Source: Verrucomicrobiota bacterium (GTDB lineage: Bacteria; Verrucomicrobiota; Verrucomicrobiia; Limisphaerales; Fontisphaeraceae). From it: a stretch of DNA of 36,244 nucleotides. This document shows positions 114 to 25,778 of this stretch, piece by piece; position 1 is the first letter of the stretch; each line of letters opens with the position of its first letter. Position numbers and translations under genes: made by a program. The DNA lies in the NCBI GenBank assembly GCA_037139415.1, contig JBAXGN010000069.1, positions 1 through 36,244 on the forward strand, written 5' to 3'. The notes beneath the pieces are model-generated. The model was given only the letters and a program-made list of their open reading frames with translations, had not been told where the DNA came from and did no database searches.

Positions 114-3100
114 TTGAATAATTGCGTTTTGAGCAAAAATTTTGCCGGCGTGGGAGGTGGTGCGAATTCCAGTACTTTGAGTAATTGTTTCTTGATGGGA
201 AATTTCGCCGTTTATAATGGCGGCGGTGCATTTGCCGGAAAACTGGTCGGATGCGTTTTAACCGAGAACTGTGCTAATTACGGCGGCGGCGTTGGCAGCG
301 CCCAGTTATATAACTGTGTTTTGACACGTAATTCAGCCATTCTGCCAAATGGCTATGGAGGCGGTGCCGATCGTAGCACCTTGAATAATTGCACGGTTAG
401 TGGCAATATGGCGGTTTATGGCGGTGGTGTGTGTGAGGGCGTTCTCACTAATTGTATTGTCTATTATAACACCTCGATAAGTGGGCAAAATTACGATACA
501 ACTGAAGGTGGATTTTTAACCTTTGACTCCTGTTGCACCACGCCACTGCCTCCAGGAGCGAATAACCTCTCTTCAGATCCACTCTTGGCATCAGCATCAC
601 ATTTGTCACAATTCTCTCCCTGCATCGCACGTGGTAACGTGAGTTCTACCACCGGGGCTGATATAGACGGCGATCCTTGGTTTAACCCTCCCTGCATCGG
701 GGCTGATCAATTCGTGGCTGGCATGACCACTAGGGCGCTGGCGGTTGCCATTTCCGCAACTTACACCAATGTCGCTGTCGGCTTTTCCGTGGACGTTACT
801 GCCCAAATAGACGGTCGGCTCGACGCCAGCGTCTGGAATTTTGGTGACGGCACTGTAATTAGCAATCAGCCCTATTCCAGCCACGCTTGGAATACCCCGG
901 GCCTGTATCCGGTACTACTGACCGCCTATGGCCAAAGTTATCCCTTGGGTCTAAGTGCGACCGTGATGGTACGGGTGGTCAGTCAGCCGGTTTATTATGT
1001 GAACTGTAGCAATTCAACCCCGGCATACCCTTTTGCCAATTGGGCCACCGCCGCCCGGACCATCCAGCAGGCCATTGATGCAGGTTCATTGCCTGGGCGA
1101 CTGGTGCTGGTGACTAACGGCGTGTACGAAACGGGCGCATCCACCGCTGATGTCAGCACCACCAACCGGGTGACTTTAACCAATTCGGTTCTGGTCCAGA
1201 GCGTGAATGGACCGGAGGTTACTTGGATCGTCGGTTCCTCGAATGAAATGGTTCGGTGTGCCTATGTCGGCTCCTATGCTGGACTGAGTGGCTTTACCCT
1301 CACCAATGGCTACACCCAAGGTAGCGGTGGAGGTGCCTACGGCGAACTCAGCGGCACCATCACTAATTGCGTCATTACGGGAAATTGGGCTTATTGGTTC
1401 GGTGGTGGCACATACTCAGGAAGATTGAAACGCTGTTTACTGTTGGCCAACTATGCTGGTAGTGGCGGCGCAGCTTTTGGAGGAGTCTTCGACAATTGCA
1501 TAATCTGCGGGAACCAGGCTGTGTATGGAGGGGGAACCTATAGTAGTTTTCTCAATAACTGCGTGTTGACTAACAATGTGGGAAACCAGGGCGGTGGAGC
1601 TATTTGTAGTATGATAAACAACAGTATTTTAATTGGCAATGTGGCGTGGAACGGTGGTGGCGCAGCGCTGAGCACGCTGAATAATTGTACCGTGATCAAC
1701 AATACAGCAACGTACAATGGAGGCATATCTGACAGCATCTCATTCAACAGTATTGTTTATTACAATTCTGGCACGTATGGTTCAAATTGTGGTGGTACTT
1801 ACAACGTCTTTTACAGTCATACCTGCACTACACCATTGGTGGATGGCATAGGCAACATCACTGATGAACCGATGTTATTTAATCGTTTAGCGGGAAATGT
1901 GCACCTGCTAACCAACTCTCCCTGTGTGGATGCCGGAAACGATGAGGTGCTGCAGGCTGGATGGCTTGACATGGATGGTAATCCGCGCATGTTTGGCCAG
2001 CATGTCGATATAGGAGCCTATGAGTGCCAAACAACGCTACTTCAGATTATGCAGCAGCCGCAGAGTTTGACCAACTATTTAGGCACGGTTGCGACTTTTA
2101 CAGTTGGAGTCATAGGTCCAGGACAGATACAATATCAATGGCAATTTAACGACAGTAATATTGTTGGAGCCACATCCTCAATACTTGTGTTGAGCAACTT
2201 GCAACTCAACAACGCGGGCCAATATTCTGTCATTGTATCCAACGCCACCCAGAGTGTTACCAGTCAGGTAGCAACGCTTACATTGTGGATACCGCGTTTT
2301 GTCTGGCCAAATAGTCCCAACCCAACCGCACCTTACACAAATTGGCAGACGGCAGCTCGCACTATCCAGGCGGCGGTGGATGACGCGCAACCCAATGACG
2401 TCATAGTCGTGACCAATGGCATCTACAACACCGGTGGTAAGGCGGTATATGGAACCATGACCAACCGGGTGGCCCTTGATAGGGGAGTCACGGTTCAAAG
2501 TGTGAACGGCCCGGAAGTGACATGGATCATGGGCGCTGGATCTGGTGGCAATGACACTAATGGAGATGGGGCGATCCGGTGTGCTTATGTGGGCTCAAAT
2601 GCCTGGCTGATCGGTTTTACTTTAACAAATGGGCACACTCGTTCCAAAGGAGATGCCGTGTACGAACAAAGTGGGGGTGGAGCATGGGTCGCCAATTATG
2701 GAGTCGTATCGAACTGTATTTTAAGCTGCAATTCGGCGGACTACTCCGGGGGTGGCGGGTACGGCTACAAATTTTACAACTGCATCATATCGAACAACAC
2801 CGTGTTCACGAATGGAGGGGGAGTATGCTCGGCGAACCTATATAATTGCCTATTGGTAAACAATAAAGCGTCCATTGGTGGCGGTGGTGCCTATAACAGC
2901 TCATTGTTTGCGTGCACCGTAAGAAGCAACTTGACGTCTAATAACGGAGGTGGGGCATACGGCGGCACACTGAGCAACAGTACCATCCAAGGGAACACGG
3001 CATTGCTAGGCGGCGGAACTTACTCCAGCACACTGTATTATTGTTATGTGACCTCCAATACTGCCTCATCTGGAGGAGGCGGATATTTGGGGACAAACAA

Positions 3101-6100
3101 TTACTGCATCATCAACAGAAATTATGCAACAAACAGCGGAGGTGGGGCATACGGCGGCACACTGAGCAACAGTACCATCCAAGAGAACTCGACATTGCAG
3201 GGTGGCGGAACTTACTCCAGCACACTGTACTATTGTTATGTGATTTCGAATTCCGCCTCATCTGGAGGAGGCGGATTTTTGGGTGCCATCAATAACTGCA
3301 TCATCAACAGGAATTATGCGACAAACGGAGCGGGAATATATAACAGCACCTTAAAAAATTGCACGGTGACTGAAAATGCGGCTAAAACATCGGGGGGAGG
3401 AAGCTACGGCGGCACCTTGTATAATTGCATTGTTTATTATAATACCGCGGCAAATTATTCTAATTATTATAGCGGCACTATTAACTATTCATGCACGGCG
3501 CCTTTGCCCGCTGGCACAGGAAACATCAGCACGAATCCTTTACTGGCATCAATCACCCACCTTGCGGCGTCATCACCTTGCATTGACAAGGGGCTGATCG
3601 ATTATGTCAGCGGGACCGATATTGATGGTGAGGCATGGCTGAACCCGCCTTGCATGGGGGCAGATCAATATGCATCCGGCCCCGCGACGGGAAGTTTGTC
3701 GGTCGCTATTTCATCTGTCACTGGCACCGGGGTGAATTATTCGGAAAATTTCACGGCACAAATTGAGGGACGGCTGAGCGCGAGTGTTTGGAATTTTGGT
3801 GACGGCACCATTGTGAGCAACCAACTCTGCATAAGCCATGCTTGGGGTGCCCCGGGAATCTACCCGGTTCAATTGACGGGTTATAACGCGAGTAATCCTG
3901 GCGGAATCACAGCCACCGTCATGGTGAGCGTGGTGAAGCAAGCCTATTATGTCGATGCGAACAGTGTTGGCCCCATATCCCCTTACACGAATTGGGCCAC
4001 TGCCGCACGGACAATCCAAGAGGCGGTGGACGCTGCGGTACCTGGCAACCTGGTGCTGGTGAACAGCGGCATCTATAATACTGGTGGCAAAGCTGTGTCT
4101 GGTAGCACCATGACCAATCGGCTGGCCATTAATAAAGCCATTGTCGTACAAAGCTTGAACGGCCCTGGAGTGACTTTGATTGCAGGCCAGGGATCAAATG
4201 GCTGCGTTGGACCCGGAGCGATCCGGTGCGCGTATGTGGGCACCAATGCCGTATTAAGTGGCTTCACCCTGACCAATGGTTTTACATTGCCTTTGGGTGA
4301 ATATGGCCGTTATCAAAGTGGCGGGGGAGCGTATTGCGAACCCAGCGGGATGTTGAGCAACTGTGTGGTAGCGGGAAATACGGCGGCTTATCAAGGCGGC
4401 GGTGTATTTCAAGGCACACTCCAAAACTGTGTATTGTATCAAAATTCAGCACTCATGGGTGGTGGCGCATGCAGCAACCTGATGAATAACTGCTCTGTAT
4501 CTGGGAATTGTGCCGATGCAACTGGAGGTGGAGCATATCAGTGCACAATCAATAACTGCATCGTCTATTACAATCGTGCTGCACGCGATCCAAATTATTA
4601 CGGTGGCTCGTGCAGTTATAGTTGTACCATGCCTCTGCCGATGGGAATCGGTAATATTGAGGAAGATCCATTATTGGTTACCCGCTCGCATTTGTCGGTC
4701 TTGTCACCTTGTATTGGCCGAGGCAATGCCAACTATGCACTTGGAGCCGATATTGACGGTGATCCGTGGGAAGATCCTCCGTGCATCGGGGTGGATCAAT
4801 ATACGTCTGGAGCATCTACTGGGGCCTTGACGGTTGCCATTTCGGCACCATTCACTAATCTGGCAGCGGGGTATAATGCAGATTTCACCGCAGTAATTGA
4901 CGGTCGGGTCTATGCCAATGTTTGGGATTTTGGCGATGGAACAGTTTTAAGTAATCGTGTTTACGTAAGTCATACGTGGAATGTGCCAGGCGTTTATGTG
5001 CTGCGGTTGACAGGGTATAACGATAGTAATCCGGGCGGGGTTAGTACCGTGATCACAGTCCAGGTGGTTAATCAGCCTGTCTATTACGTGAACGCGAATA
5101 ATTCCACTCCGATGTATCCCTACACAAATTGGACCACCGCTGCGGTGACTATCCAGACAGCCATCGAAGCGGGGTCTTTGCCCGGGCGTCTCGTACTGGT
5201 GGCTGACGGCGTTTATGGCAATGGCGGAGTGCCTGTCTATGGAAGGATGACCAACCGGGTGGCAATTACGGATGGGGTGACAGTGCAAAGTATGAATGGC
5301 CCTGAGGTAACGTGCATTGTGGGAGCGGGTAGTGGCGGTCTCACAAATAATGGCGACGGAGCCATACGCTGCGCCTATTTGGGACCCAAAGCGGTTTTAA
5401 GTGGATTCACACTTACCAATGGATATACGCGTGGTGCTTTAAATGCGTACCAAGAAAAATCGGGTGGCGGTGCTTGGTGTGACATTAGTGCTGTAGTTAC
5501 CAACTGTCTGGTTATTGGTAATTCCTCCTCATATTTGGGCGGAGGAATATACGGTGGCACACTCATCAATTGTCGTCTGATTGGCAATTTATCTAGCCGT
5601 GGTGGGGGAGTATATGCAGCAATGTTGACCAACTGCTCGATCGGAGGCAATTCAGCAGGTGAAGGGGGTGGCGTCAATTCTTCCACTTTAAGTAATTGTA
5701 GCCTGACAAACAATGGAAGATATAATGGTGGCGGGTCGGCCTATAGCCTGTTATACAATTGTTTGGTGTCTAGCAACATAGCCAGTATGGGGGGTGGAGC
5801 GTTTTACTGTGCGCTAAGTAACTGTGTCGTGGTCGGGAATTCCGCAACCAACAGTGCCGGTGGGGTGTATTGTGGCACCATGAGTAGCTGCGCTGTGAAT
5901 GGCAATCGTGCGGGATTTGCAGGGGGCGGAGTTTTCGAGGCAATACTCGACAATTGCCTGGTGGTAAGCAACACAGCGGCTAAAGGAGGCGGCAGTGCTT
6001 ATTCCACGAATTACAATACCACGCTGATTGGAAATGGGGCAACGAACGCGGGCGGTGGATCGTATAATGATACCCTGATTAACTGTATCAGTTACTACAA

Positions 6101-6869
6101 TACTGCTCCCAGTAATGCCAATTGGTTTTCTAATTGGAATTCTTTTAGCGTTCAATACTGCTGCACCACACCAAATCCAGTTGGCATCGGCAATATTACT
6201 AATGAGCCAATGTTCATTAATCTTTCAGACGGAAATTTTCAGCTTCTGTTGAATTCGCCATGCGTTGACGCCGGAGATGATAGCAAGGTGCAATCCTCCT
6301 GGCTGGACTTGGAAGGCAAGCCGCGAATCTTGGGTGCGCATGTGGATATCGGAGCGTACGAATTTGGAAGCACCAACTTACAGTTTTTGCAGCCGCAACA
6401 GAACATCACCAACACGGTTGGTACAACAGAAAAATTCACGGCGTCCGTAACAGGCATTGGTCCCTTGGGGTATCAGTGGTATTTCAACTCTAATGCCTTG
6501 CTTTCCACTCAAACTAACAACATTTTGACCTTGGCTAATCTCCGGTTGAATGATGCAGGATTGTATTCAGTCGTGGTGACGAATCGTTCCGGCACCATAA
6601 CTGGCGATGTATTAAAACTGTGGGTGGCTTACCAAATTCCGCCAACTGGAATCCGGTATCCGAAATCGGGCACCAATACGGTCTTCCATCTCGGGGTGCA
6701 GGCGGAGGAAGGGCGCAGCTATTGGCTGGAAGTGCGGGACAGCCTGGTCACCGGTCAGTGGCGGTGCATCGCGGGCGTGACGAATTACGCGGGAACGACC
6801 AACCTGCTGGATACGAATGCGGTCGGTAAACACCGGTTTTATCGCATCGGCAGTGCGAGTGAGAAGTGA
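114..6869 (+). CDS. Giant Pmp-like beta-helix / PKD / Ig-like repeat surface protein, 5' end incomplete
   Basis: Probable secreted or surface-anchored adhesin or glycan-binding protein of at least 2,251 residues. Most of it is a right-handed beta-helix made of rungs of the form GGGxY...L.NC.V..N, recalling the chlamydial Pmp motifs GGA(I/L) and FxxN. Four copies of a helix entry module (YYVN...[14 protein letters not shown]) begin near residues 292, 728, 1277 and 1656. PKD domains with FGDGT lie near 207-285, 1195-1275 and 1571-1655. Ig-like domains with the YQW...L.L.N..L.NAG.YSV pattern lie near 642-725 and 2089-2170. Helix segments end in an SPC.D.G...DIDG...IGA(D/Y) block, as in choice-of-anchor-Q proteins. 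The last ~75 residues resemble the terminal domain common in verrucomicrobial exported proteins. The start used is a TTG inside a rung; repeat-like sequence continues upstream to an in-frame TAA at 39-41 and no signal peptide is present, so the true N-terminus is not seen. The gene is more AT-rich than its neighbours. Confidence 0.8.
2945..3281 (+). repeat. Near-identical 192-nt tandem duplication inside the beta-helix gene
   Basis: The stretch from about 2945 to 3089 recurs at 3137 to 3281 with only scattered substitutions. The period is exactly 192 nt, which is 64 codons or roughly three helix rungs, so the reading frame is kept. Other rungs in the gene are much more diverged, so this looks like a recent in-frame expansion. 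Confidence 0.8.
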
Positions 6870-11984: not shown

Positions 11985-12737
11985 ATGGCAAAAAACGCGT
12001 TATTGCGATGGCTGCACGGCTATGGAGCCCACCACCGGGAATTGGGTATTAATCGCTGCAACGATATCATCGGGCAGGCGGTCGCTGATTTGGCGCCGGA
12101 TTGCCTGCTGGATGTCGGTTGCGGTGATGGGAGCATGTTGTTCCGCTATCTGAAAAAAACGCCCCGTGAATTTTACGGAATCGAAGGGGCACCTGACTTG
12201 AAAGCGCAGGCGGAGGCACGCGGGTTAAAGATGGCCAGCTTTGATCTGAATGGGCGTTGGTCATACGAAGACAATAAATTTGATGTCGTATTCAGTTCAC
12301 AGGTAATTGAGCACCTGCACAATGCCCGCCTTTTCGTGGAAGAAATGTACCGCGTGCTTAAGCCTGGCGGCACCGCCATCGTGGCTTCGGAAAACCTTTG
12401 CAGTATCTTGAATACCTTCGCCATGGCGATGGGCTATACCCCGTTCTCCCTGATGCAGACCTGTGGCCGCTATCTGGGCAACCCCATCGGTCTGCATTAC
12501 AACGAGAAGTTGGTCGAACATGTGCCGGTGGACCACCCCGCCTTTTCCGGGGTCTCCGGCCATGTGCGGGTGCTTACCGTGCGCCAGGCGCGCGAATTGT
12601 TTGACCTGACTGGTTTCCAGACGGAGGCATGGTCCGTCAGCATTCTCCCCCTGCCCGACTGGTTGAGCCGTCGGCTCGAAAGCGTTGTCATACATCGTGG
12701 TCATTATCTGATTGTTCGGGCCAAGAAACCTGTATAA
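11985..12737 (+). CDS. Class I SAM-dependent methyltransferase
   Basis: Protein of 250 residues with a Methyltransf_11/25-type domain. Motif I, LLDVGCGDGS, is at 41-50, an acidic post-I strand (YGIEGAPDL) follows, FDVVFSSQVIEHLHN lies near 100-114, and RVLKPGGTAIVASEN comes after that. The C-terminal half contains further motifs seen in methyltransferases acting on lipids, quinones or sugars, but the acceptor cannot be told. It starts 74 nt after pabC on the same strand, with a poor Shine-Dalgarno. No signal or membrane segment is seen. Confidence 0.85.
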   Translation: MAKNALLRWLHGYGAHHRELGINRCNDIIGQAVADLAPDCLLDVGCGDGSMLFRYLKKTPREFYGIEGAPDLKAQAEARGLKMASFDLNGRWSYEDNKFDVVFSSQVIEHLHNARLFVEEMYRVLKPGGTAIVASENLCSILNTFAMAMGYTPFSLMQTCGRYLGNPIGLHYNEKLVEHVPVDHPAFSGVSGHVRVLTVRQARELFDLTGFQTEAWSVSILPLPDWLSRRLESVVIHRGHYLIVRAKKPV

Positions 12738-12931
12738 GCCAGGTGGACCGCAGCGAGTTTTTGAGCGATTCCTACAGCGGCCTGCTGATGGATTTGCCAT
12801 GGGACTTTTTATATCTTTGTTCCACTCACGGACGAGTAAAGCTGGCCCCTCCACCTGCCCAGTCGCCCATTTATCATTCCCCATTTCAAAGCCGCCGGGG
12901 ATATTTTGTTGACCCGCGCCGGAGCCGGGTT

Positions 12932-13309
12932 ATGTTTGGCGGCATGGAACATTCGCCTGGTTTTTTAAAATTGGTCAATGACAAGCGCCGATTTGTCAAC
13001 GAGATCTCGGTGGCGGAAGCGCGCGCCATTATCACCCGTAACCCCAAGGCCGTCCTCATGGATGTCCGCGAGGATCATGAATGGGACAAGGGACACGCCG
13101 TGGAAGCCGTGCATCTCGGCAAAGGCATCATCGAGCGGGATATTGAAAAAGCGGTGCCAGACAAGCAGTCGGAGATCATTCTTTACTGCGGCGGCGGCTT
13201 TCGGTCGGCATTGTGCTGCGAAGTACTGCAGGAGATGGGGTACAAGAAGGTGTATTCCGTGATCGGTGGTTGCCGGGCGATCATTGACGCCGGTTGGAAG
13301 ATGCAGTAG
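12932..13309 (+). CDS. Single-domain rhodanese-like protein
   Basis: Small cytosolic sulfurtransferase-like protein of 125 residues. Rhodanese landmarks are EISVAEARA near the start, VLMDVREDHEWDKGHAVEAVHLGKG and the active-site loop CGGGFRS with Cys86 as the persulfide cysteine, followed by GCRAIIDAGW. The frame is open upstream to 12629, but the ATG at 12932 has a GGAG 7 nt before it and gives a normal N-terminus. A RACo-like redox protein follows after 39 nt, which fits a role in Fe-S or sulfur handling, though this is inferred. Confidence 0.85.
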   Translation: MFGGMEHSPGFLKLVNDKRRFVNEISVAEARAIITRNPKAVLMDVREDHEWDKGHAVEAVHLGKGIIERDIEKAVPDKQSEIILYCGGGFRSALCCEVLQEMGYKKVYSVIGGCRAIIDAGWKMQ

Positions 13310-13348
13310 CAGGCCGCTCTCTCTTCCGCAAACAGGAATCCGCTGCGT

Positions 13349-14863
13349 ATGGCCACGAAAGTTCACATTGAGCTGGTGCCGATGGGCAAAAAGTTTGAGG
13401 TGGAGCCCGGCAGTCAGCTTCAGGATGTGCTGTTTGCTTTCGGAGTGGAATTTCCCTGCGGCGGCCGTGGCCGCTGCAAGGGGTGCCGCGTCAAAGTGCT
13501 CGACGGGGAGTTTCCCATCACGGCGGAACAATCCCGCGTGTTATCGCCAGAAGAGTTGCAGGCCGGTTGGCGGCTGGCCTGTCGCGGCGAGGTGCGCGGG
13601 CCGTTGAAGATCGAATTGGCCCAATGGGAGGCGTCCATTCTCGCGGATGATTCCGCGTTCACCTTTATTCCGCAGGCGGGGTTGGGGGTGGCCGTGGATC
13701 TGGGCACCACCACGGTCGTCGCGCAACTGCTGGATTTGCAGACCGGCAATGTGCTGGCGGTGCGGTCCGCCTGGAACACGCAGGCGCGGCACGGCGGCGA
13801 CATCATGAGCCGGGTGGATTACGCGGTCAGCGGCGGTGGTCAAGCCGACCTGACAACGCTGATCCGCAATCAGATTGGCGCGCTGATCAGTGAGTTGTTC
13901 GAGGGTGCCGGGCGATCCTCCGCCGAACTCCAGCGGGTGGTCGTGGTGGGCAACACCGTGATGCATCATTTCTTCTGCGGCCTCGATGCCGGGCCGCTGT
14001 CGCAGCATCCCTTCGAGCCGGATCAGGATGGACTGCATGAGTTTTCCGCCCGCGAGGTGGGTTGGGAACTGGGTGATAACGTCCGGGTGTTGTTTCTGCC
14101 CTGTCTGGGCGGGTTCGTCGGTAGTGATATTTTGGCGGGTATCGTGGCGACCCGGCTGCACGAGAGCGAGGCGCTATGCGCGCTGATTGACCTGGGCACC
14201 AACGGGGAAATTGTCATTGGCAACCGGGATGGCATGTTATGTTCCTCCACTGCCGCCGGGCCAGCCTTTGAAGGGGCGCGGATCTCCATGGGCATGCGCG
14301 CCGCCACGGGCGCAATTTCCGAAGTGACGCTGGTGGCGGGGCGATTACACTGCCGGGTATTGGGCCACGCGGAACCGCGCGGCCTCTGCGGCAGCGGGCT
14401 GGTGGATGCGGTGGCGGGTTCCCTGGATGCTGGTTGGATCAAGCCGTCCGGGCGGATTACCAGCGGGGACGGCATACCGCTGCAAGGTCCGGTCAAACTA
14501 AACCAGGCCGACATCCGGGAACTGCAATTGGCCAAAGGGGCCATTGCGGCCGGGATACGCCTGATGGTCGAGCAGATGGGCCGCCGGTTGGACGAGGTGC
14601 AAACGGTGCATCTCGCCGGCGCGTTCGGTAACTACATCAATCGCGCTAGCGCGCAGCGCATCGGGCTGCTGCCGTTTCCCATAGAACGCGTGAAGCCCGC
14701 CGGCAATACCGCCTTGTTGGGCGCCAAACTCGCGCTGTTTGCGCCGGATCAGGAGCACTTCCAGTACCGGGCCTTGCGCGCGAAGGTGCGGCATACCTGC
14801 CTGAATGAGGATGAGCGGTTTCAAGAGGTGTATGTGGAGGAAATGTCGTTTCCACCGGCGTAA
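13349..14863 (+). CDS. RACo-like corrinoid activation protein (2Fe-2S ferredoxin + ASKHA ATPase)
   Basis: Protein of 504 residues with the two-part architecture of reductive activators of corrinoid proteins (DUF4445/RACo). The N-terminal plant-type ferredoxin domain carries Cys37, Cys43, Cys46 and Cys78 (FPCGGRGRCKGC and LACRG). An actin-like ATPase follows, with VAVDLGTTTVVAQLLD near 114, LIDLGTNGEI near 280, a GPAFEG segment and GLCGSGLVDAVAGSLDAGW. Family members use ATP binding and a reduced 2Fe-2S centre to return inactive Co(II) corrinoid to Co(I) in methyltransferase systems. No corrinoid-binding protein, methyltetrahydrofolate methyltransferase or UroD-like methyltransferase lies in the window, so its partner is elsewhere. 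AGGAA at 13334-13338 supports the start. Confidence 0.85.
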   Translation: MATKVHIELVPMGKKFEVEPGSQLQDVLFAFGVEFPCGGRGRCKGCRVKVLDGEFPITAEQSRVLSPEELQAGWRLACRGEVRGPLKIELAQWEASILADDSAFTFIPQAGLGVAVDLGTTTVVAQLLDLQTGNVLAVRSAWNTQARHGGDIMSRVDYAVSGGGQADLTTLIRNQIGALISELFEGAGRSSAELQRVVVVGNTVMHHFFCGLDAGPLSQHPFEPDQDGLHEFSAREVGWELGDNVRVLFLPCLGGFVGSDILAGIVATRLHESEALCALIDLGTNGEIVIGNRDGMLCSSTAAGPAFEGARISMGMRAATGAISEVTLVAGRLHCRVLGHAEPRGLCGSGLVDAVAGSLDAGWIKPSGRITSGDGIPLQGPVKLNQADIRELQLAKGAIAAGIRLMVEQMGRRLDEVQTVHLAGAFGNYINRASAQRIGLLPFPIERVKPAGNTALLGAKLALFAPDQEHFQYRALRAKVRHTCLNEDERFQEVYVEEMSFPPA

Positions 14864-14969: not shown

Positions 14970-16790
14970 ATGCGATTAGCGACGGTGATTGAATGCCAGA
15001 CAGGGCAGGGCGATGCACAAGCCACGAGCACGATGGCTGCCGTCGGCATTGCCAGTAATCTGGAAACCACGGCAGAGCCGTTTCTGGACGAAGATGGCGA
15101 CGAGTCCTTGACCGTGCGCCTGGCGGGTCCTGAAGATCGGGAAAGCATCTACCGGTTGCGCCACGAGGTCTATGCGCGTGAATTGGGCCAGCACCATGTC
15201 AATCCCGAGGGGCGGCTGAGCGATCCGCTCGATGCGTATAACCTTTATATCGTCATCTGCTCTGGGAAACGCATCCTGGGTTTTGTCTCCATCACGCCGC
15301 CCGGCAGCCCCAAGTTCTCGATTGATAAATATTTTCAGCGCGCTGACCTGCCGTTTCCGGTGGACGACAAGCTGTTTGAAGTGCGACTGCTCACCGTGCC
15401 ACCCACGGCGCGGCGCACGCAATTGGCCCTGGCTTTGATGTATGCCTCGTTTCGCTGGGTGGAATCCCACGGCGGCACCCGTATCATGGCCATTGGGCGG
15501 CAGGAAGTGCTCAGCATTTACCGCCGGGTGGGCCTCAAGCTGGTGGGGCAATTGGCCCGGTCCGGCGCGGTGACGTACGAACTCATGCAGGCTACCATGC
15601 CGGATGTGCATGCCGCGCTGCCCGGCATTGGCCGGATGCTAGCCCGGGTTGAGGTCCGGATGGCGTGGAAGATCGGGGTGGAGTATCGCACGCCCGCGCA
15701 CTGTTTTCATGGCGGTCAGTTTTTCAAGGCGGTGGGCGAGGATTTTGACGCGTTGGAGCGGTTGGACAGCATCATCAACGCCGACGTGCTGGATGCCTGG
15801 TTTCCGCCTTCACCCAAGGCGGTTGCTGCCGTGCAAGCACACCTGCCAAGGTTGTTGCGCACCTCGCCTCCCACAGAGGCGGACGGGCTCATCCGGGCGA
15901 TTGCCCGCGCGCGCGGGGTGGCCCCGGAGTGTGTGCTGCCGGGCGCGGGTTCCTCGGATTTGATCTTTCTGGCGTTGCGCCATTGGTTGACGCCGTCGTC
16001 GCGCGTCTTGATTTTGGACCCCATGTATGGCGAATATGCGCACGTCCTGGAGCGGGTCATTCGTTGTCGGGTGGATCGTTTGCCGCTGGAACGTCAGCGG
16101 CAATATCAGCTTGATTTGGGGAGCCTGGAAAAACAGCTCGCCGCCGGGTACGACCTGGTGGTGCTGGTCAACCCGAACAGCCCGACTGGCCGTCATGTGG
16201 GGCGCGAAGCGTTGGAAGGTGTTTTAAGCCGGGTGCCGGCGGAAACCCGGGTGTGGGTGGATGAAACCTACGTGGATTATACCGGGTCGGGTAATTCGCT
16301 GGAGCATTTTGCCGTGCGCAGCCCCAATGTGATGGTCTGTAAGTCCATGTCCAAGGTGTATGCGCTGAGCGGTGCCCGCGTGGCGTACCTGTGCGCCAGC
16401 CCGCACCAACTGGAATCGTTGCGGGCCATTTCTCCCCCGTGGGCCGTCAGTCTGCCAGCGCAAGTGGCCACGGTCGCCGCCTTGCAGGATTCGGCGTATT
16501 ACGCGGGGGTGCATGCGCAGACGCGCGTGTTGCGTGAGGAACTGGCCCAATGGCTGGCGACGTTGGGATGGGAAGTGGTGCCCAGTACGACCAATTTTCT
16601 GCTGTGCCACCTGCCAGCCACCGGCCCGGATGCCGCGACGGTGATTGCCCGGTGCCGTCCGCGGGGACTCTATTTGCGCGATGCTGCGACCATGGGGCAG
16701 ACCCTGGGACCGCGCGTGTTACGCATTGCGGTCAAGGATGCGGCGACCAATCGCCAGATGATTCAGATCCTGCGTGAAGTCCTTGGGTAA
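14970..16790 (+). CDS. Fusion of GNAT/autoinducer-synthase-like acyltransferase and HisC-like PLP aminotransferase
   Basis: A 606-residue two-domain protein. Residues ~45-200 look like a GNAT-fold acyltransferase of the LuxI/FeeM type: YRLRHEVYARELG, a DPLDAYNLYIV strand, ILGFVSITPPG, FEVRLLTVPPTARR and a helix-strand ending IYRRVGLKLVG. From ~260 on it is a fold-type I aminotransferase related to histidinol-phosphate aminotransferase: PGAGSSDLIF, VLVNPNSPTGRHV, WVDETYVDYTG and SMSKVYALSGAR with Lys462 as the PLP lysine, then the C-terminal arginine in RVLRIAVKD. The ATG at 14970 gives a poorly conserved ~40-residue leader; ATG 15033 is an alternative start. The gene is monocistronic-looking. 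A plausible product is an N-acylated amine or amino acid, but acyl donor and amine are unknown. The aminotransferase half is secure; the acyltransferase subfamily is less so. Confidence 0.75.
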   Translation: MRLATVIECQTGQGDAQATSTMAAVGIASNLETTAEPFLDEDGDESLTVRLAGPEDRESIYRLRHEVYARELGQHHVNPEGRLSDPLDAYNLYIVICSGKRILGFVSITPPGSPKFSIDKYFQRADLPFPVDDKLFEVRLLTVPPTARRTQLALALMYASFRWVESHGGTRIMAIGRQEVLSIYRRVGLKLVGQLARSGAVTYELMQATMPDVHAALPGIGRMLARVEVRMAWKIGVEYRTPAHCFHGGQFFKAVGEDFDALERLDSIINADVLDAWFPPSPKAVAAVQAHLPRLLRTSPPTEADGLIRAIARARGVAPECVLPGAGSSDLIFLALRHWLTPSSRVLILDPMYGEYAHVLERVIRCRVDRLPLERQRQYQLDLGSLEKQLAAGYDLVVLVNPNSPTGRHVGREALEGVLSRVPAETRVWVDETYVDYTGSGNSLEHFAVRSPNVMVCKSMSKVYALSGARVAYLCASPHQLESLRAISPPWAVSLPAQVATVAALQDSAYYAGVHAQTRVLREELAQWLATLGWEVVPSTTNFLLCHLPATGPDAATVIARCRPRGLYLRDAATMGQTLGPRVLRIAVKDAATNRQMIQILREVLG

Positions 16791-22859: not shown

Positions 22860-25778
22860 TCAGCTCCGCGTGATCTGCAATCCCGTATCCGAGAGGCTCA
22901 GTTGCACAAAGCGCGCCCGCGGATTGGGCGGCTGGGCGGTCAGGGTTTTCTGAATGCGGCGCGCGGCTTCCTCATCCTTGGCGAACATCAGCAGGAATCC
23001 GCCACCACCCGCACCCAGCAGCTTGGTGGCCGCCAGATAATCTTCCACCGGGGTTAGGATGCGCTGCACCTCCGGCGGGTTGGTGCCGGAATCCAATCGC
23101 TGATTTAACGTCCAACTGCGGCGAATGCACGCCGTCAAGTCGTTATAATCGCACTGTTGAATGGCTTGATAGGTCAATTCCGCGTTGAGCCCAATCTCCC
23201 CGATGATCCGCAAGTGCGAGGGTGAATTGAGGAAAATTCCGCGCACGATTTCCTGGAGGATGTTTTTCGCCAGCCGGGTGATACCGGTATAATACAGCAA
23301 CACCGTTTTATTGGCGTATTCCCGTTCAAACAGGTGCGGTGGCAGCCAGCGCAACGTGGGCTTCTGCGAGAGCCCAGGCCCGGTTTCCACCAGTTTTATG
23401 CCGCGGAAAATGGCGCCAGCCTGGTCCTGCCAGCCGCCGCCGGTGGTAAGCATCTGTTCCAGCGCCAGCGTGCGGATAAACAAGACGTTTCGGTCCCAGT
23501 TCAGCCCGCACAGATCGCTCAGGGTCGCCAGCAGCGTGGCGGCCAGGATGCTGCTGGTGCCCAGCCCGGAACCTTTGGGCACCGCCGACAGCATCGAGAC
23601 CTCAATGCCGCCGCCAAACTGCTCCAATAACTGGTCCTTGAGTGAAGGGGCTCCGCCCGTGGCATGAAACCTCGGCAGGAACCCCGCCAGCGCTAGCGCC
23701 GCTTTTGCCAAAGCAAATTCGCTACCGGGCCGGGCATAGGTATCCAGCTCCTCGTATGTGTGGATGCGTTGCTCCACCCCCAGGTCAATCGAACGCAACA
23801 CCAGTGCCGGTTCGGCACCGAGTTTGCCAAACACTTGGATGGGCGGTTGACTGTTCAAATCCACCGCCATATTCAGCACTTTGCCGCCGTATTCCAGACA
23901 GTAAGGCGGTGTATCTGTCCAGCCCCCGGCCAAGTCCAACCGCACCGGGCTGCGCCCCCAGACAATCTGATCTTCCTGCACATTGCTGTGCGGCAACACC
24001 GGCGACAATTGGGCGTCCCGCACAATCATCTCCTGCAAAAGCGCAAAGGCCTTTGATTCGTATTGTTCCCAGTCGGCCGTACCCCGATGGCGCAGCACGG
24101 CGGCCCGAAACATCTGATCATGCACCTGCTGCAGCGGTTCCTGACCATCGCCCGCATCCATATCCAGCTTGGGCAAAGGTTGGTCGCCGGTGGCAAACAG
24201 CCGGGCGGTGCTTTCCAAGTCGAGTTTGAAAAACACGCTGTACCGATAATTCCGCAGCATGGGCAACAGGCAACCATTGCGTAACTTGGCGCGCTGCTCA
24301 GTATGCCGACGCCAGTTAATCTCCGTGATCAGTTGGCGGGCCGAAAGCCGGCGCGAGGACTGCCAAAGGGCGGAAAAACCCGCATTCGCCGCCGGTCTGG
24401 CCGCAAACAGCCAGTGCAGGAACTGGGGATCCATCGCCTTGGCGGCGAGCACGGGAAACAGCGGCGCATCCTGGATGTCCAGACCGGCAACCAAGCCGGC
24501 TTTTTCCAGACTGATGCCACGTGCCCGAAACCAGTCCGCCAGTGGCCAATCAAACCAGAGCGTGGTGGCCGCCTCCACGGTGCCAGAAAAAGTATCGCGA
24601 ATGCCATAGGCGCGAACGCAATAATCGGTTTCGCCCACGGGCACAAAATCCAGGCAGGCTCCCGCCTCCAACTTAAGCGGCCACTGATTGGCTGGCGCGC
24701 CGGTCACCACATGGTTGCTGGCCAGTTCCCAGGTGGCGGGCACATGGCTATTTTCCAGCCATAACGCCTGATTTTGCTCGCGACTCAGGAGGTAATCAAA
24801 CTGCGTGTTCTGGATATATTGATCCGGATGCCGCTTGGCACCCATCAGCCCCAGCTTGGTTTCATCCAGTTCCACGCTCTGCATGCGGGATACGGATTCG
24901 ATCATTTCCTGGCTGGAACTGAAACGGTAAATATCCGCGCCCGGCAGCGGCACCACCGCGCAGGATAGGCGGTTGATGAGCGGATTCTGCACCGAGGGAT
25001 GCGCCCCCAATGCCGGTCCGAAATCCCGGTATAAACCGCACGCCTGCACCCGGCCCCCGGCGAACGCTCCTTGCTGTGCCACCCAGCCGCAGCGTTCCAG
25101 CAACACTTCAATGGCCTGCGCGCTAAAGAGCCAGGCACCTGTGTCCACCAGGTAAATCTGGTCATTCGGCAACGCCCGCAACTGCGCTGCCGCCGGCTTT
25201 TGCAGAAACTGGGACAAGTCATTGGGGCGCTGGCGGGTGGTGATAAAAACACCAAAGCCATGCGCCCGTTCCGGCGTTTGCCACAGACCTAATCCGAGCA
25301 CATCCGCCACCGGCAGCTTGGGCAGTTGCGCCGGCAACCGCAACAGGACGTCACCGCTGACCACCATCACCGGCAGGCTGTCTGGCGCCTGGCCCAGGAT
25401 CTTCAAGCAATCGGGCAACAATAAATCGAGTAACGTTTGATCCAGGCGCTGTCCGCGCGCCCAACGCATGACGGAAATCGGAATCAACGGCTTGCCGCTC
25501 GCAGCATACGCTGGCAAGGCACGGTGTTCCCCGCCGCCATTGATGATCAGCTTGCGAGAACTGCGCAACCAATCGCCAAACGACTGTCCCGCACCGAGGC
25601 GCCGCCAAGCCTCCACCAGCACGTGCGCGGTGGCCCCGCCTGAGCCCACGGATTGACCCTCCGGGTCAGTGGTCACAATCCATTGGCAATTGGATTGGCC
25701 CTCCGGGGCGCGAAATTCGGCCGCCGCCCGCGGCGGAAGCGTCAACAGGCACTGCACAGTGGTTGGGGTTGAGGTCAT
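22860..25778 (-). CDS. fkp: Bifunctional fucokinase / L-fucose-1-phosphate guanylyltransferase
   Basis: Cytosolic enzyme of 972 residues, close in size to Bacteroides Fkp. The N-terminal part is the GDP-fucose pyrophosphorylase: GSGGATAHVL, then INGGGEHRALPAYAASGK near 80-97 and MRWARGQRLDQTLL. The C-terminal ~370 residues are a GHMP kinase: SPVRLDLAGGWTDTPPY near 606, the ATP-binding loop VPKGSGLGTSS near 730-741, TTGGGWQDQAGA, and LGAGGGGFLLMF near 918-930. The combined activity turns L-fucose plus ATP and GTP into GDP-L-fucose for fucosylation of surface glycans. All signature motifs are intact. The order on the minus strand is fkp, lutA, lutB. Confidence 0.9.
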   Translation of the reverse strand: MTSTPTTVQCLLTLPPRAAAEFRAPEGQSNCQWIVTTDPEGQSVGSGGATAHVLVEAWRRLGAGQSFGDWLRSSRKLIINGGGEHRALPAYAASGKPLIPISVMRWARGQRLDQTLLDLLLPDCLKILGQAPDSLPVMVVSGDVLLRLPAQLPKLPVADVLGLGLWQTPERAHGFGVFITTRQRPNDLSQFLQKPAAAQLRALPNDQIYLVDTGAWLFSAQAIEVLLERCGWVAQQGAFAGGRVQACGLYRDFGPALGAHPSVQNPLINRLSCAVVPLPGADIYRFSSSQEMIESVSRMQSVELDETKLGLMGAKRHPDQYIQNTQFDYLLSREQNQALWLENSHVPATWELASNHVVTGAPANQWPLKLEAGACLDFVPVGETDYCVRAYGIRDTFSGTVEAATTLWFDWPLADWFRARGISLEKAGLVAGLDIQDAPLFPVLAAKAMDPQFLHWLFAARPAANAGFSALWQSSRRLSARQLITEINWRRHTEQRAKLRNGCLLPMLRNYRYSVFFKLDLESTARLFATGDQPLPKLDMDAGDGQEPLQQVHDQMFRAAVLRHRGTADWEQYESKAFALLQEMIVRDAQLSPVLPHSNVQEDQIVWGRSPVRLDLAGGWTDTPPYCLEYGGKVLNMAVDLNSQPPIQVFGKLGAEPALVLRSIDLGVEQRIHTYEELDTYARPGSEFALAKAALALAGFLPRFHATGGAPSLKDQLLEQFGGGIEVSMLSAVPKGSGLGTSSILAATLLATLSDLCGLNWDRNVLFIRTLALEQMLTTGGGWQDQAGAIFRGIKLVETGPGLSQKPTLRWLPPHLFEREYANKTVLLYYTGITRLAKNILQEIVRGIFLNSPSHLRIIGEIGLNAELTYQAIQQCDYNDLTACIRRSWTLNQRLDSGTNPPEVQRILTPVEDYLAATKLLGAGGGGFLLMFAKDEEAARRIQKTLTAQPPNPRARFVQLSLSDTGLQITRS

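What the first reader, a model, noticed from the sequence alone, without database searches (positions are those of the whole stretch)
14970..16790. Acyltransferase-aminotransferase fusion that could make a new signal or lipoamine
One reading frame joins a GNAT-fold domain with LuxI/FeeM-like features (LRHEVYARELG, DPLDAYNLYIV, FEVRLLTVP) to a complete HisC-like PLP aminotransferase with Lys462. LuxI-type enzymes acylate an amino substrate; a fused aminotransferase could supply or alter that amine. No other signal-synthesis gene is near. Seen directly: both domains and the intact PLP motif. Inferred: that the N-terminal half transfers a fatty acyl group.
Basis: partly seen in the sequence, partly recalled or inferred. 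Interest (0 to 1): 0.75.

Follow-up and report, generated by a model that had tools for sequence, protein, structure and literature searches.

The report
Two-step fusion enzyme for fatty amides
A single bacterial protein joins a vitamin-B6 enzyme that probably makes a small phosphorylated amine to an acyltransferase that probably hangs a fatty chain on it; relatives in actinobacteria sit beside a membrane-lipid gene, which points to an unusual lipid rather than to a cell-to-cell signal.

Summary
In detail: 14970-16790 (+) is one 606-aa frame with a FeeM/LuxI-type GNAT domain (FeeM 36.3 bits, cut-off 27) and a complete PLP domain with Lys462. It is no assembly join: 56 of 71 named loci, 4 of 39 genomes of the relatives draw and 8 Streptomyces plasmid records carry it. 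The PLP half leans to CobD over HisC (HGG N-arm in 62 of 62 rows) but fails both family cut-offs; its genome has two other HisCs and no CbiB. New clue: in 7 of 8 Streptomyces records and in Actinoplanes a CdsA-type cytidylyltransferase gene overlaps the fusion by 4 bases. A second family joins a related GNAT to a PhnW-like class V aminotransferase behind plsY (14 of 16 loci). Best reading: the PLP domain makes a small amino-alcohol phosphate (serinol-P or ethanolamine-P), the GNAT N-acylates it, and the product feeds phospholipid-type lipids. The reactions are inferred. A quorum signal is not supported: no LuxR-type receptor domain was found. New variant of a known kind.

The parts
14970..16790 (+). 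the fusion gene, 606 aa plus stop
14970..15098 (+). residues 1-43, predicted disordered; true start may lie inside (codon 22 is an ATG)
   Evidence: pLDDT below 50 for 1-43; sequence
15099..15698 (+). FeeM/LuxI-type GNAT domain, residues 44-243
   Evidence: Pfam FeeM; AF2 of the domain alone pLDDT 93.3; Foldseek and VIA-align
15378..15386 (+). Glu137-Val138-Arg139, candidate catalytic Glu and invariant Arg of the GNAT domain
   Evidence: E137 and R139 in 53 of 53 fused rows; E137 aligns with a Glu of BjaI
15702..16787 (+). CobD/HisC-type PLP domain, residues 245-606
15708..15716 (+). His247-Gly248-Gly249, CobD-type N-arm motif
   Evidence: 62 of 62 rows; present in three CobD-type proteins from cobalamin loci, absent from both own HisCs; VIA-align range puts residue 247 on residue 8 of 1LKC
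16353..16355 (+). Lys462, PLP lysine
   Evidence: 62 of 62 rows

Best explanation
A bifunctional N-acyl amino-alcohol (phosphate) synthase. The CobD/HisC-like PLP domain makes a small phosphorylated amine: most likely serinol phosphate by transamination of dihydroxyacetone phosphate, or else ethanolamine phosphate by decarboxylation of O-phosphoserine. The FeeM-type GNAT domain then moves a fatty acyl group from acyl-ACP or acyl-CoA to that amine. The product is an amide analogue of lysophosphatidate, which lipid enzymes such as a CdsA-type cytidylyltransferase can take further. Shown: the two domains, their conserved active-site residues, the spread of the fusion, the CdsA overlap in actinobacteria, and the sister fusion behind plsY. 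Inferred: both reactions, the order of steps (amine first, because PLP chemistry needs a free amine) and the product.
For: (a) FeeM/LuxI-type domain with residues of the superfamily: R64, D85, D88, E137, R139 in 53 of 53 fused rows; the Arg, the two Asp and the Glu fall on BjaI's own in the profile alignment. (b) PLP domain with CobD features (HGG arm, P-x-W) but not in a cobamide pathway: no CbiB match in the genome (control rings in 8 of 14 genomes), no CobD over the cut-off in 39 genomes of the relatives draw, own included (control over the cut-off in 3 of 14). C. jejuni Cj1437 makes serinol-P from DHAP and Cj1436 makes ethanolamine-P from phosphoserine (PMC11800397, passages). (c) A CTP_transf_1/CdsA gene overlaps the fusion by 4 bases in 7 of 8 Streptomyces plasmid records and in Actinoplanes; Actinoplanes has one other, diverged match in its genome. 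(d) A related GNAT is joined to a PhnW-like class V aminotransferase behind plsY, in Verrucomicrobiota and Cytobacillus. (e) Bacterial N-acyl synthases that give N-palmitoyl serinol in E. coli are known, from Desulfitobacterium and a Bacillus (PMC9605164, passage).
Against: The CdsA link is seen only in actinobacteria; one of 8 Streptomyces records lacks it (L120), and tblastn finds no such gene in the held flanks of the other loci or in the window. No neighbour cluster recurs in more than 10 of 60 fusion loci, and the window's neighbours look unrelated. PLP-only relatives (47-56% identical) lie in genomes with no match to the N-domain (0 of 9; no positive control in that call), so the PLP product also has uses without this acylation. 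CobD likeness favours decarboxylation, serinol-P needs transamination: the domain does not decide. CobD and HisC tie by VIA-align, and one PLP-only relative scores higher for HisC. The FeeM profile misses some members: L099 and L089 fall below the cut-off and L116 does not match. In the 53-row profile search of PDB sequences FeeM and LuxI types did not appear.
Confidence: 0.5

Rival explanations
1. N-acyl amino acid synthase with a built-in transaminase: the PLP domain makes an alpha-amino acid from a 2-oxo acid and the FeeM domain N-acylates it, giving a free N-acyl amino acid (surfactant or signal-like).
For: FeeM is the only GNAT-type Pfam family over its cut-off for the window protein; N-acyl tyrosines, with candidate synthases of this kind, are reported from a planctomycete (PMC7293339, passages).
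Against: The PLP domain keeps the CobD arm motif in 62 of 62 rows and resembles enzymes of phosphorylated substrates; the linked CdsA and plsY genes point to phosphate lipids. Common amino acids would not need a dedicated PLP partner (inference).
Confidence: 0.2
2. Ordinary short-chain N-acetyltransferase joined to the PLP enzyme: the amine made by the PLP domain is acetylated, as in amino-sugar or ectoine-type pathways, and no lipid is made.
For: VIA-align's top row is a plain GNAT (5jph, Z 17.8 over 140 residues), tied with LuxI-type rows and FeeM (17.3-17.7); Acetyltransf_1 outscores FeeM in L099 and L089; the 53-row profile finds serotonin acetyltransferase best, weakly (E 0.043).
Against: BjaI and RpaI align over 186-188 of 200 residues, most plain GNATs among the 50 rows shown over about 135-155; BjaI heads the Foldseek list; FeeM passes its cut-off in the window protein; CdsA overlap.
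Confidence: 0.18
3. LuxI-like signal synthase making a new diffusible autoinducer.
For: LuxI-type fold; sporadic distribution.
Against: No PF03472 receptor domain found in the genome (control rings in E. coli only, 1 of 14), no PF00765 match for the window protein at E up to 0.1, the place of LuxI's Trp34 holds Gln74 in 53 of 53 rows, lipid genes in relatives.
Confidence: 0.06

Closest known systems
FeeM and related N-acyl amino acid synthases (Pfam PF21926; PDB 2G0B)
   Same: N-domain profile over the cut-off; same fold (2g0b_C: VIA Z 17.3, 2.5 A, 167 residues); an invariant Glu (E137) that may match the catalytic Glu reported for this family.
   Different: Fused to a PLP enzyme; 15% identical in the structure alignment; substrate unknown.
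Human-microbiome N-acyl serinol synthases (hm-NAS; Cohen et al. 2017)
   Same: N-acyltransferases giving N-palmitoyl serinol in E. coli (PMC9605164 and PMC11271093, passages). That they carry an aminotransferase domain is recalled, not read; the paper is not held.
   Different: By inference those correspond to the class V (PhnW-like) fusion behind plsY; the present family uses a CobD/HisC-like (class I/II) domain.
CobD, threonine-phosphate decarboxylase (TIGR01140; PDB 1LC5, 1LC7, 1LC8, 1LKC)
   Same: First three Foldseek matches of the full model; HGG arm, P-x-W; VIA Z 42.1, 349 residues, 25% identity for 1lc7.
   Different: 199.9 bits against a cut-off of 290.55; no CbiB match in the genome; fused to an acyltransferase.
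HisC, histidinol-phosphate aminotransferase (TIGR01141)
   Same: Fold and PLP residues; VIA Z tied with CobD (8bj3, 42.1).
   Different: 177.2 bits against 276.55; the genome has two HisCs over the cut-off (298.4 and 343.6 bits), neither with the HGG arm.
Campylobacter jejuni Cj1437 and Cj1436
   Same: Enzymes that make serinol-P from DHAP and ethanolamine-P from phosphoserine (PMC11800397, passages); that they are HisC/CobD-like PLP enzymes is recalled.
   Different: No acyltransferase partner is mentioned in the passages seen; sequences not compared here.
Nas343/Nas354, NAS domain fused to PilZ
   Same: FeeM-type domain at the N-terminus of a two-domain protein; Glu103 needed for activity (PMC4897644, passages).
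   Different: The partner is a putative c-di-GMP-binding domain, not an enzyme.

Membership tests
FeeM-type N-acyl amino acid synthase | match to Pfam PF21926 over the curated cut-off | tested here: met
   36.3 bits against 27; L099 and L089 fall below and L116 does not match
FeeM-type N-acyl amino acid synthase | catalytic Glu (FeeM Glu95, Nas354 Glu103) | tested here: inconclusive
   E137 in 53 of 53 rows and aligned with a BjaI Glu; not aligned with FeeM residue by residue
FeeM-type N-acyl amino acid synthase | transfer of a long acyl chain from acyl-ACP to an amino acid | not testable with these tools
   needs enzyme assay
LuxI autoinducer synthase | match to Pfam PF00765 | tested here: not met
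   not among the 5 families at E up to 0.1; one relative, L102, 16.3 bits against 24
LuxI autoinducer synthase | Arg24, Phe28, Trp34, Asp45, Asp48, Glu97 (positions recalled) | tested here: inconclusive
   R64, Y68, Q74, D85, D88, E137 at these places: Trp replaced by Gln in 53 of 53 rows
LuxI autoinducer synthase | LuxR-type receptor domain in the genome | tested here: not met
   0 matches to PF03472
CobD threonine-phosphate decarboxylase | TIGR01140 cut-off | tested here: not met
   199.9 against 290.55
CobD threonine-phosphate decarboxylase | cobamide pathway partner CbiB in the genome | tested here: not met
   0 matches to PF03186
CobD threonine-phosphate decarboxylase | N-terminal HGG arm | tested here: met
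   62 of 62 rows; shared with 3 CobD-type proteins from cobalamin loci
HisC histidinol-phosphate aminotransferase | TIGR01141 cut-off | tested here: not met
   177.2 against 276.55
N-acyl serinol synthase with aminotransferase domain | N-acyltransferase plus PLP aminotransferase-fold domain in one chain | tested here: met
   but the PLP domain is of another class than in the plsY-linked fusion
N-acyl serinol synthase with aminotransferase domain | makes N-acyl serinol | not testable with these tools
   needs expression and lipid analysis

The most novel reading that the evidence does not exclude
The fusion starts a phospholipid class in which the glycerol backbone is replaced by serinol: DHAP is transaminated to serinol phosphate, N-acylated, and (in actinobacteria) activated by its own CdsA, giving amide-linked phosphatidate analogues in the membrane. 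Two different PLP enzyme classes were recruited for this by one acyltransferase family.
Probability: 0.25. Interest if true: 0.85.

Novelty: new variant of a known kind. Interest (0 to 1): 0.57.

Why it matters
If true, several bacterial phyla carry a one-protein route from central metabolism to an amide lipid, hidden in databases as 'histidinol-phosphate transaminase' (the label on 6 of the 8 Streptomyces hits, the other 2 having no annotation). It would link N-acyl amide synthases, studied as makers of surfactants and host-active ligands, to membrane lipid synthesis, and the CdsA pairing makes this directly testable in laboratory actinobacteria.

Tried and rejected
Conserved operon in the window's own lineage: none found. 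Clustering of ORFs around 60 fusion loci gave no neighbour cluster in more than 10. Of 102 immediate neighbours listed, 63 were scanned together with Pfam; no family occurs in more than 3 (the listing shows 25 of 124 families; 2 of 63 match the PlsC-type Acyltransferase family, loci not identified). Ten close downstream same-strand genes gave unlike families; such genes within 60 bases occur in 17 of 65 loci, PLP-only and partial ones included. A motif scan for PlsC, CdsA and CDP-alcohol transferases added nothing consistent.

Split-gene test: if the PLP-only genomes kept a separate N-domain, linkage would be stronger. 0 of 9 had a match, without a positive control in that call.

Cobamide role: rejected. 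Histidine role: unlikely (two other HisCs). LuxI/LuxR signal: not supported.

Profiles of the N-domain against PDB sequences gave only weak hits from 53 rows (serotonin acetyltransferase, E 0.043; no FeeM or LuxI type). A mixed profile with class V fusions and a stand-alone GNAT hit BjaI at 2.1e-08. FeeM itself appeared only by fold.

PLP tree: the 9 PLP-only rows do not form one group (5 changes, at least 3 forced by well-supported branches). Its bootstrap had not settled and one outgroup row was dropped for lack of columns.

Not in print: I found no description of this fusion in ten paper searches (listings) of an open-licence library; most subscription papers are missing, so this is weak.

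Full report
The feature is real. The frame 14970-16790 (+) is open over 606 codons. Its N-terminal part matches Pfam FeeM over the curated cut-off and its C-terminal part is a class I/II aminotransferase-fold domain. AlphaFold2 from 62 aligned rows gives mean pLDDT 90.1; residues 1-43 are below 50.

The fusion is not an assembly join. In the draw of relatives, 4 of 39 genomes (own included) hold it full length; the other three are 50-59% identical. In a draw across the phylum 10 of 288 genomes match a profile of the N-domain and linker at E up to 1e-25; nine cover it whole, own included, and one (G134) has the PLP part only. A scan of named genomes for two peptide patterns gave 71 loci: 56 full-length, 9 PLP-only, 6 partial (L051, L092, L093, L100, L101, L107). 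Relatives lacking both patterns are missed, and the MAG labels are not all trustworthy. Records named as strains with the full fusion are Verrucomicrobium sp. BvORR106 and BvORR034, Haloferula rosea, Haloferula sp. BvORR071, Luteolibacter marinus, Occallatibacter savannae and Actinoplanes regularis. Of 528 plasmid records with any match, 8 are covered to at least 80%, all Streptomyces. For residue counts I aligned the window protein, 52 of the 56 full-length loci and the 9 PLP-only loci, 62 rows; L057, L073, L076 and L086 were left out because my ORF picking missed their frames.

N-terminal domain. Modelled alone (pLDDT 93.3) its best Foldseek matches are the acyl-homoserine lactone synthases BjaI and RpaI, with MesI, LasI, TofI and FeeM among the first 16 ranks; plain GNATs are interleaved from rank 6. 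By VIA-align the LuxI types, FeeM and a plain GNAT tie in Z (17.3-17.8), but BjaI and RpaI align over 186-188 of 200 residues, most plain GNATs among the 50 rows shown over about 135-155. R64, E71, Q74, D85, D88, E137, R139 and R148 are invariant in 53 fused rows. In a profile alignment with BjaI, the Arg, the two Asp and the Glu fall on BjaI's own. So the LuxI/FeeM superfamily is supported; the acyl chain length is not shown.

PLP domain. NCBIfam gives CobD 199.9 bits (cut-off 290.55) and HisC 177.2 bits (cut-off 276.55); for one Prochlorococcus PLP-only relative (L110) HisC is ahead (163.8 against 153.2). Foldseek puts S. enterica CobD first; by VIA-align CobD and HisC tie at Z 42. Two features side with CobD: the N-arm HGG and the Trp of P-x-W (W491), each in 62 of 62 rows. 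Both occur in three CobD-type proteins from cobalamin loci, annotated as histidinol-phosphate transaminase or cobyric acid synthase, and not in the two HisCs of the own genome. Yet the own genome has no CbiB match and none of 39 genomes of the relatives draw has a CobD over the cut-off. I take the domain for a separate branch of the CobD/HisC clan with another job. It also exists alone: 9 loci, including Prochlorococcus single-cell genomes, 47-56% identical to the window protein. In the tree these are scattered among the fused ones, so the N-domain was gained or lost several times; the tree is rough.

Context. In the Verrucomicrobiota and most other loci I found no recurring partner gene. In actinobacteria there is one: in 7 of 8 Streptomyces records (three of them S. 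atratus strains) and in Actinoplanes the next gene overlaps the end of the fusion by 4 bases (GTGA or ATGA) and is a CdsA-type protein: PF01148 in the four tested (L116, L117, L118, L099), 74% identical to L116's in L119, and by annotation in L123-L125. The eighth record (NBC_01591, L120) shows none. Actinoplanes holds one other match to it (44% over 120 aa), presumably the housekeeping copy. CdsA activates phosphatidate with CTP (established knowledge), so the fusion's product is probably a lipid phosphate.

A second fusion gives the same hint. One search showed N-domain matches in frames of 550-576 aa. These join a GNAT (FeeM profile 43.2 bits in L036) to a PhnW-like class V aminotransferase (TIGR03301, 171.1 bits, cut-off 360.8). 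I checked 17 loci: 16 with this fusion (L037 only in part, at a contig end) and one (L041) with the GNAT alone. plsY lies upstream next to it in 14 of the 16 fusions and also in L041; L035 begins at a contig edge and L039 shows none. In Cytobacillus spongiae an LTA-synthase-family gene follows. The two GNAT types share E71, Q74, D85, E137, R139 and R148 in the 11 rows aligned. One acyltransferase family is thus tied to two PLP classes and, separately, to plsY and to cdsA. Whether partners were exchanged or joined twice is open.

Mechanism. Cj1437 makes serinol-P from DHAP and Cj1436 makes ethanolamine-P from phosphoserine (PMC11800397, passages; that they belong to the CobD/HisC clan is recalled); RtxA's N-terminal part also makes serinol-P from DHAP (PMC3222319, passages). 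N-acyl synthase genes from Desulfitobacterium hafniense DP7 and Bacillus sp. 2_A_57_CT2 give N-palmitoyl serinol in E. coli (PMC9605164, passage); another review lists Gemella (PMC11271093, passage). I recall that the original paper describes an aminotransferase domain there, but it is not held. The class V fusion in Cytobacillus, a Bacillus relative, fits that taxon. I therefore propose that the present fusion makes an N-acyl amino-alcohol phosphate. Serinol-P fits plsY and cdsA best; CobD likeness keeps ethanolamine-P open.

Signal reading. The own genome has one FeeM-type match, this one, and no LuxR-type receptor domain by profile. Nothing found points to quorum sensing.

Verdict: an ordinary-looking 'HisC' annotation probably hides a two-step amide-lipid enzyme. 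The architecture idea has a precedent; the CobD-like version and its CdsA partner I did not find described in the searches named under Tried and rejected.

Noticed in passing
L036 5963-8226, L037, L038, L040, L126-L135: Conserved pair plsY then FeeM-type GNAT fused to a PhnW-like class V aminotransferase, from Verrucomicrobiota to Cytobacillus (followed there by an LTA-synthase-family gene); 9 of 194 Verrucomicrobiota genomes carry the fusion.
   Followed up: partly
L041 5394-6720: Stand-alone GNAT behind plsY, 59-66% identical to the N-domains of five class V fusions: the same pair without the aminotransferase domain.
   Followed up: partly
L110, L114, L115: Prochlorococcus single-cell genomes hold the PLP-only relative, with no match to the N-domain in the genome; function unknown.
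   Followed up: partly
L055 519-986, L077 7438-7956, L108 7448-7909: A MarR-type regulator lies directly upstream of the gene in two fusion loci and, by sequence cluster, one PLP-only locus.
   Followed up: no
window 12629-14863: Rhodanese gene followed by a RACo-type corrinoid activator (2Fe-2S plus ASKHA domains) in a genome without a CbiB match; a rhodanese-like gene with similar sequence, by reading, lies beside plsY-GNAT in L041.
   Followed up: no
window 114-6869: Very long ORF (2251 aa) with PKD and immunoglobulin-like domains, probably a surface protein.
   Followed up: no
window 22860-25778 (-): Fucose pyrophosphorylase and GHMP kinase domains in one frame, the make-up of bifunctional FKP enzymes (recalled).
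   Followed up: no
G000 C151 and C58 (L002, L003): Two HisC genes over the HisC cut-off in one genome; L002 has a HisD-like neighbour (by reading).
   Followed up: partly
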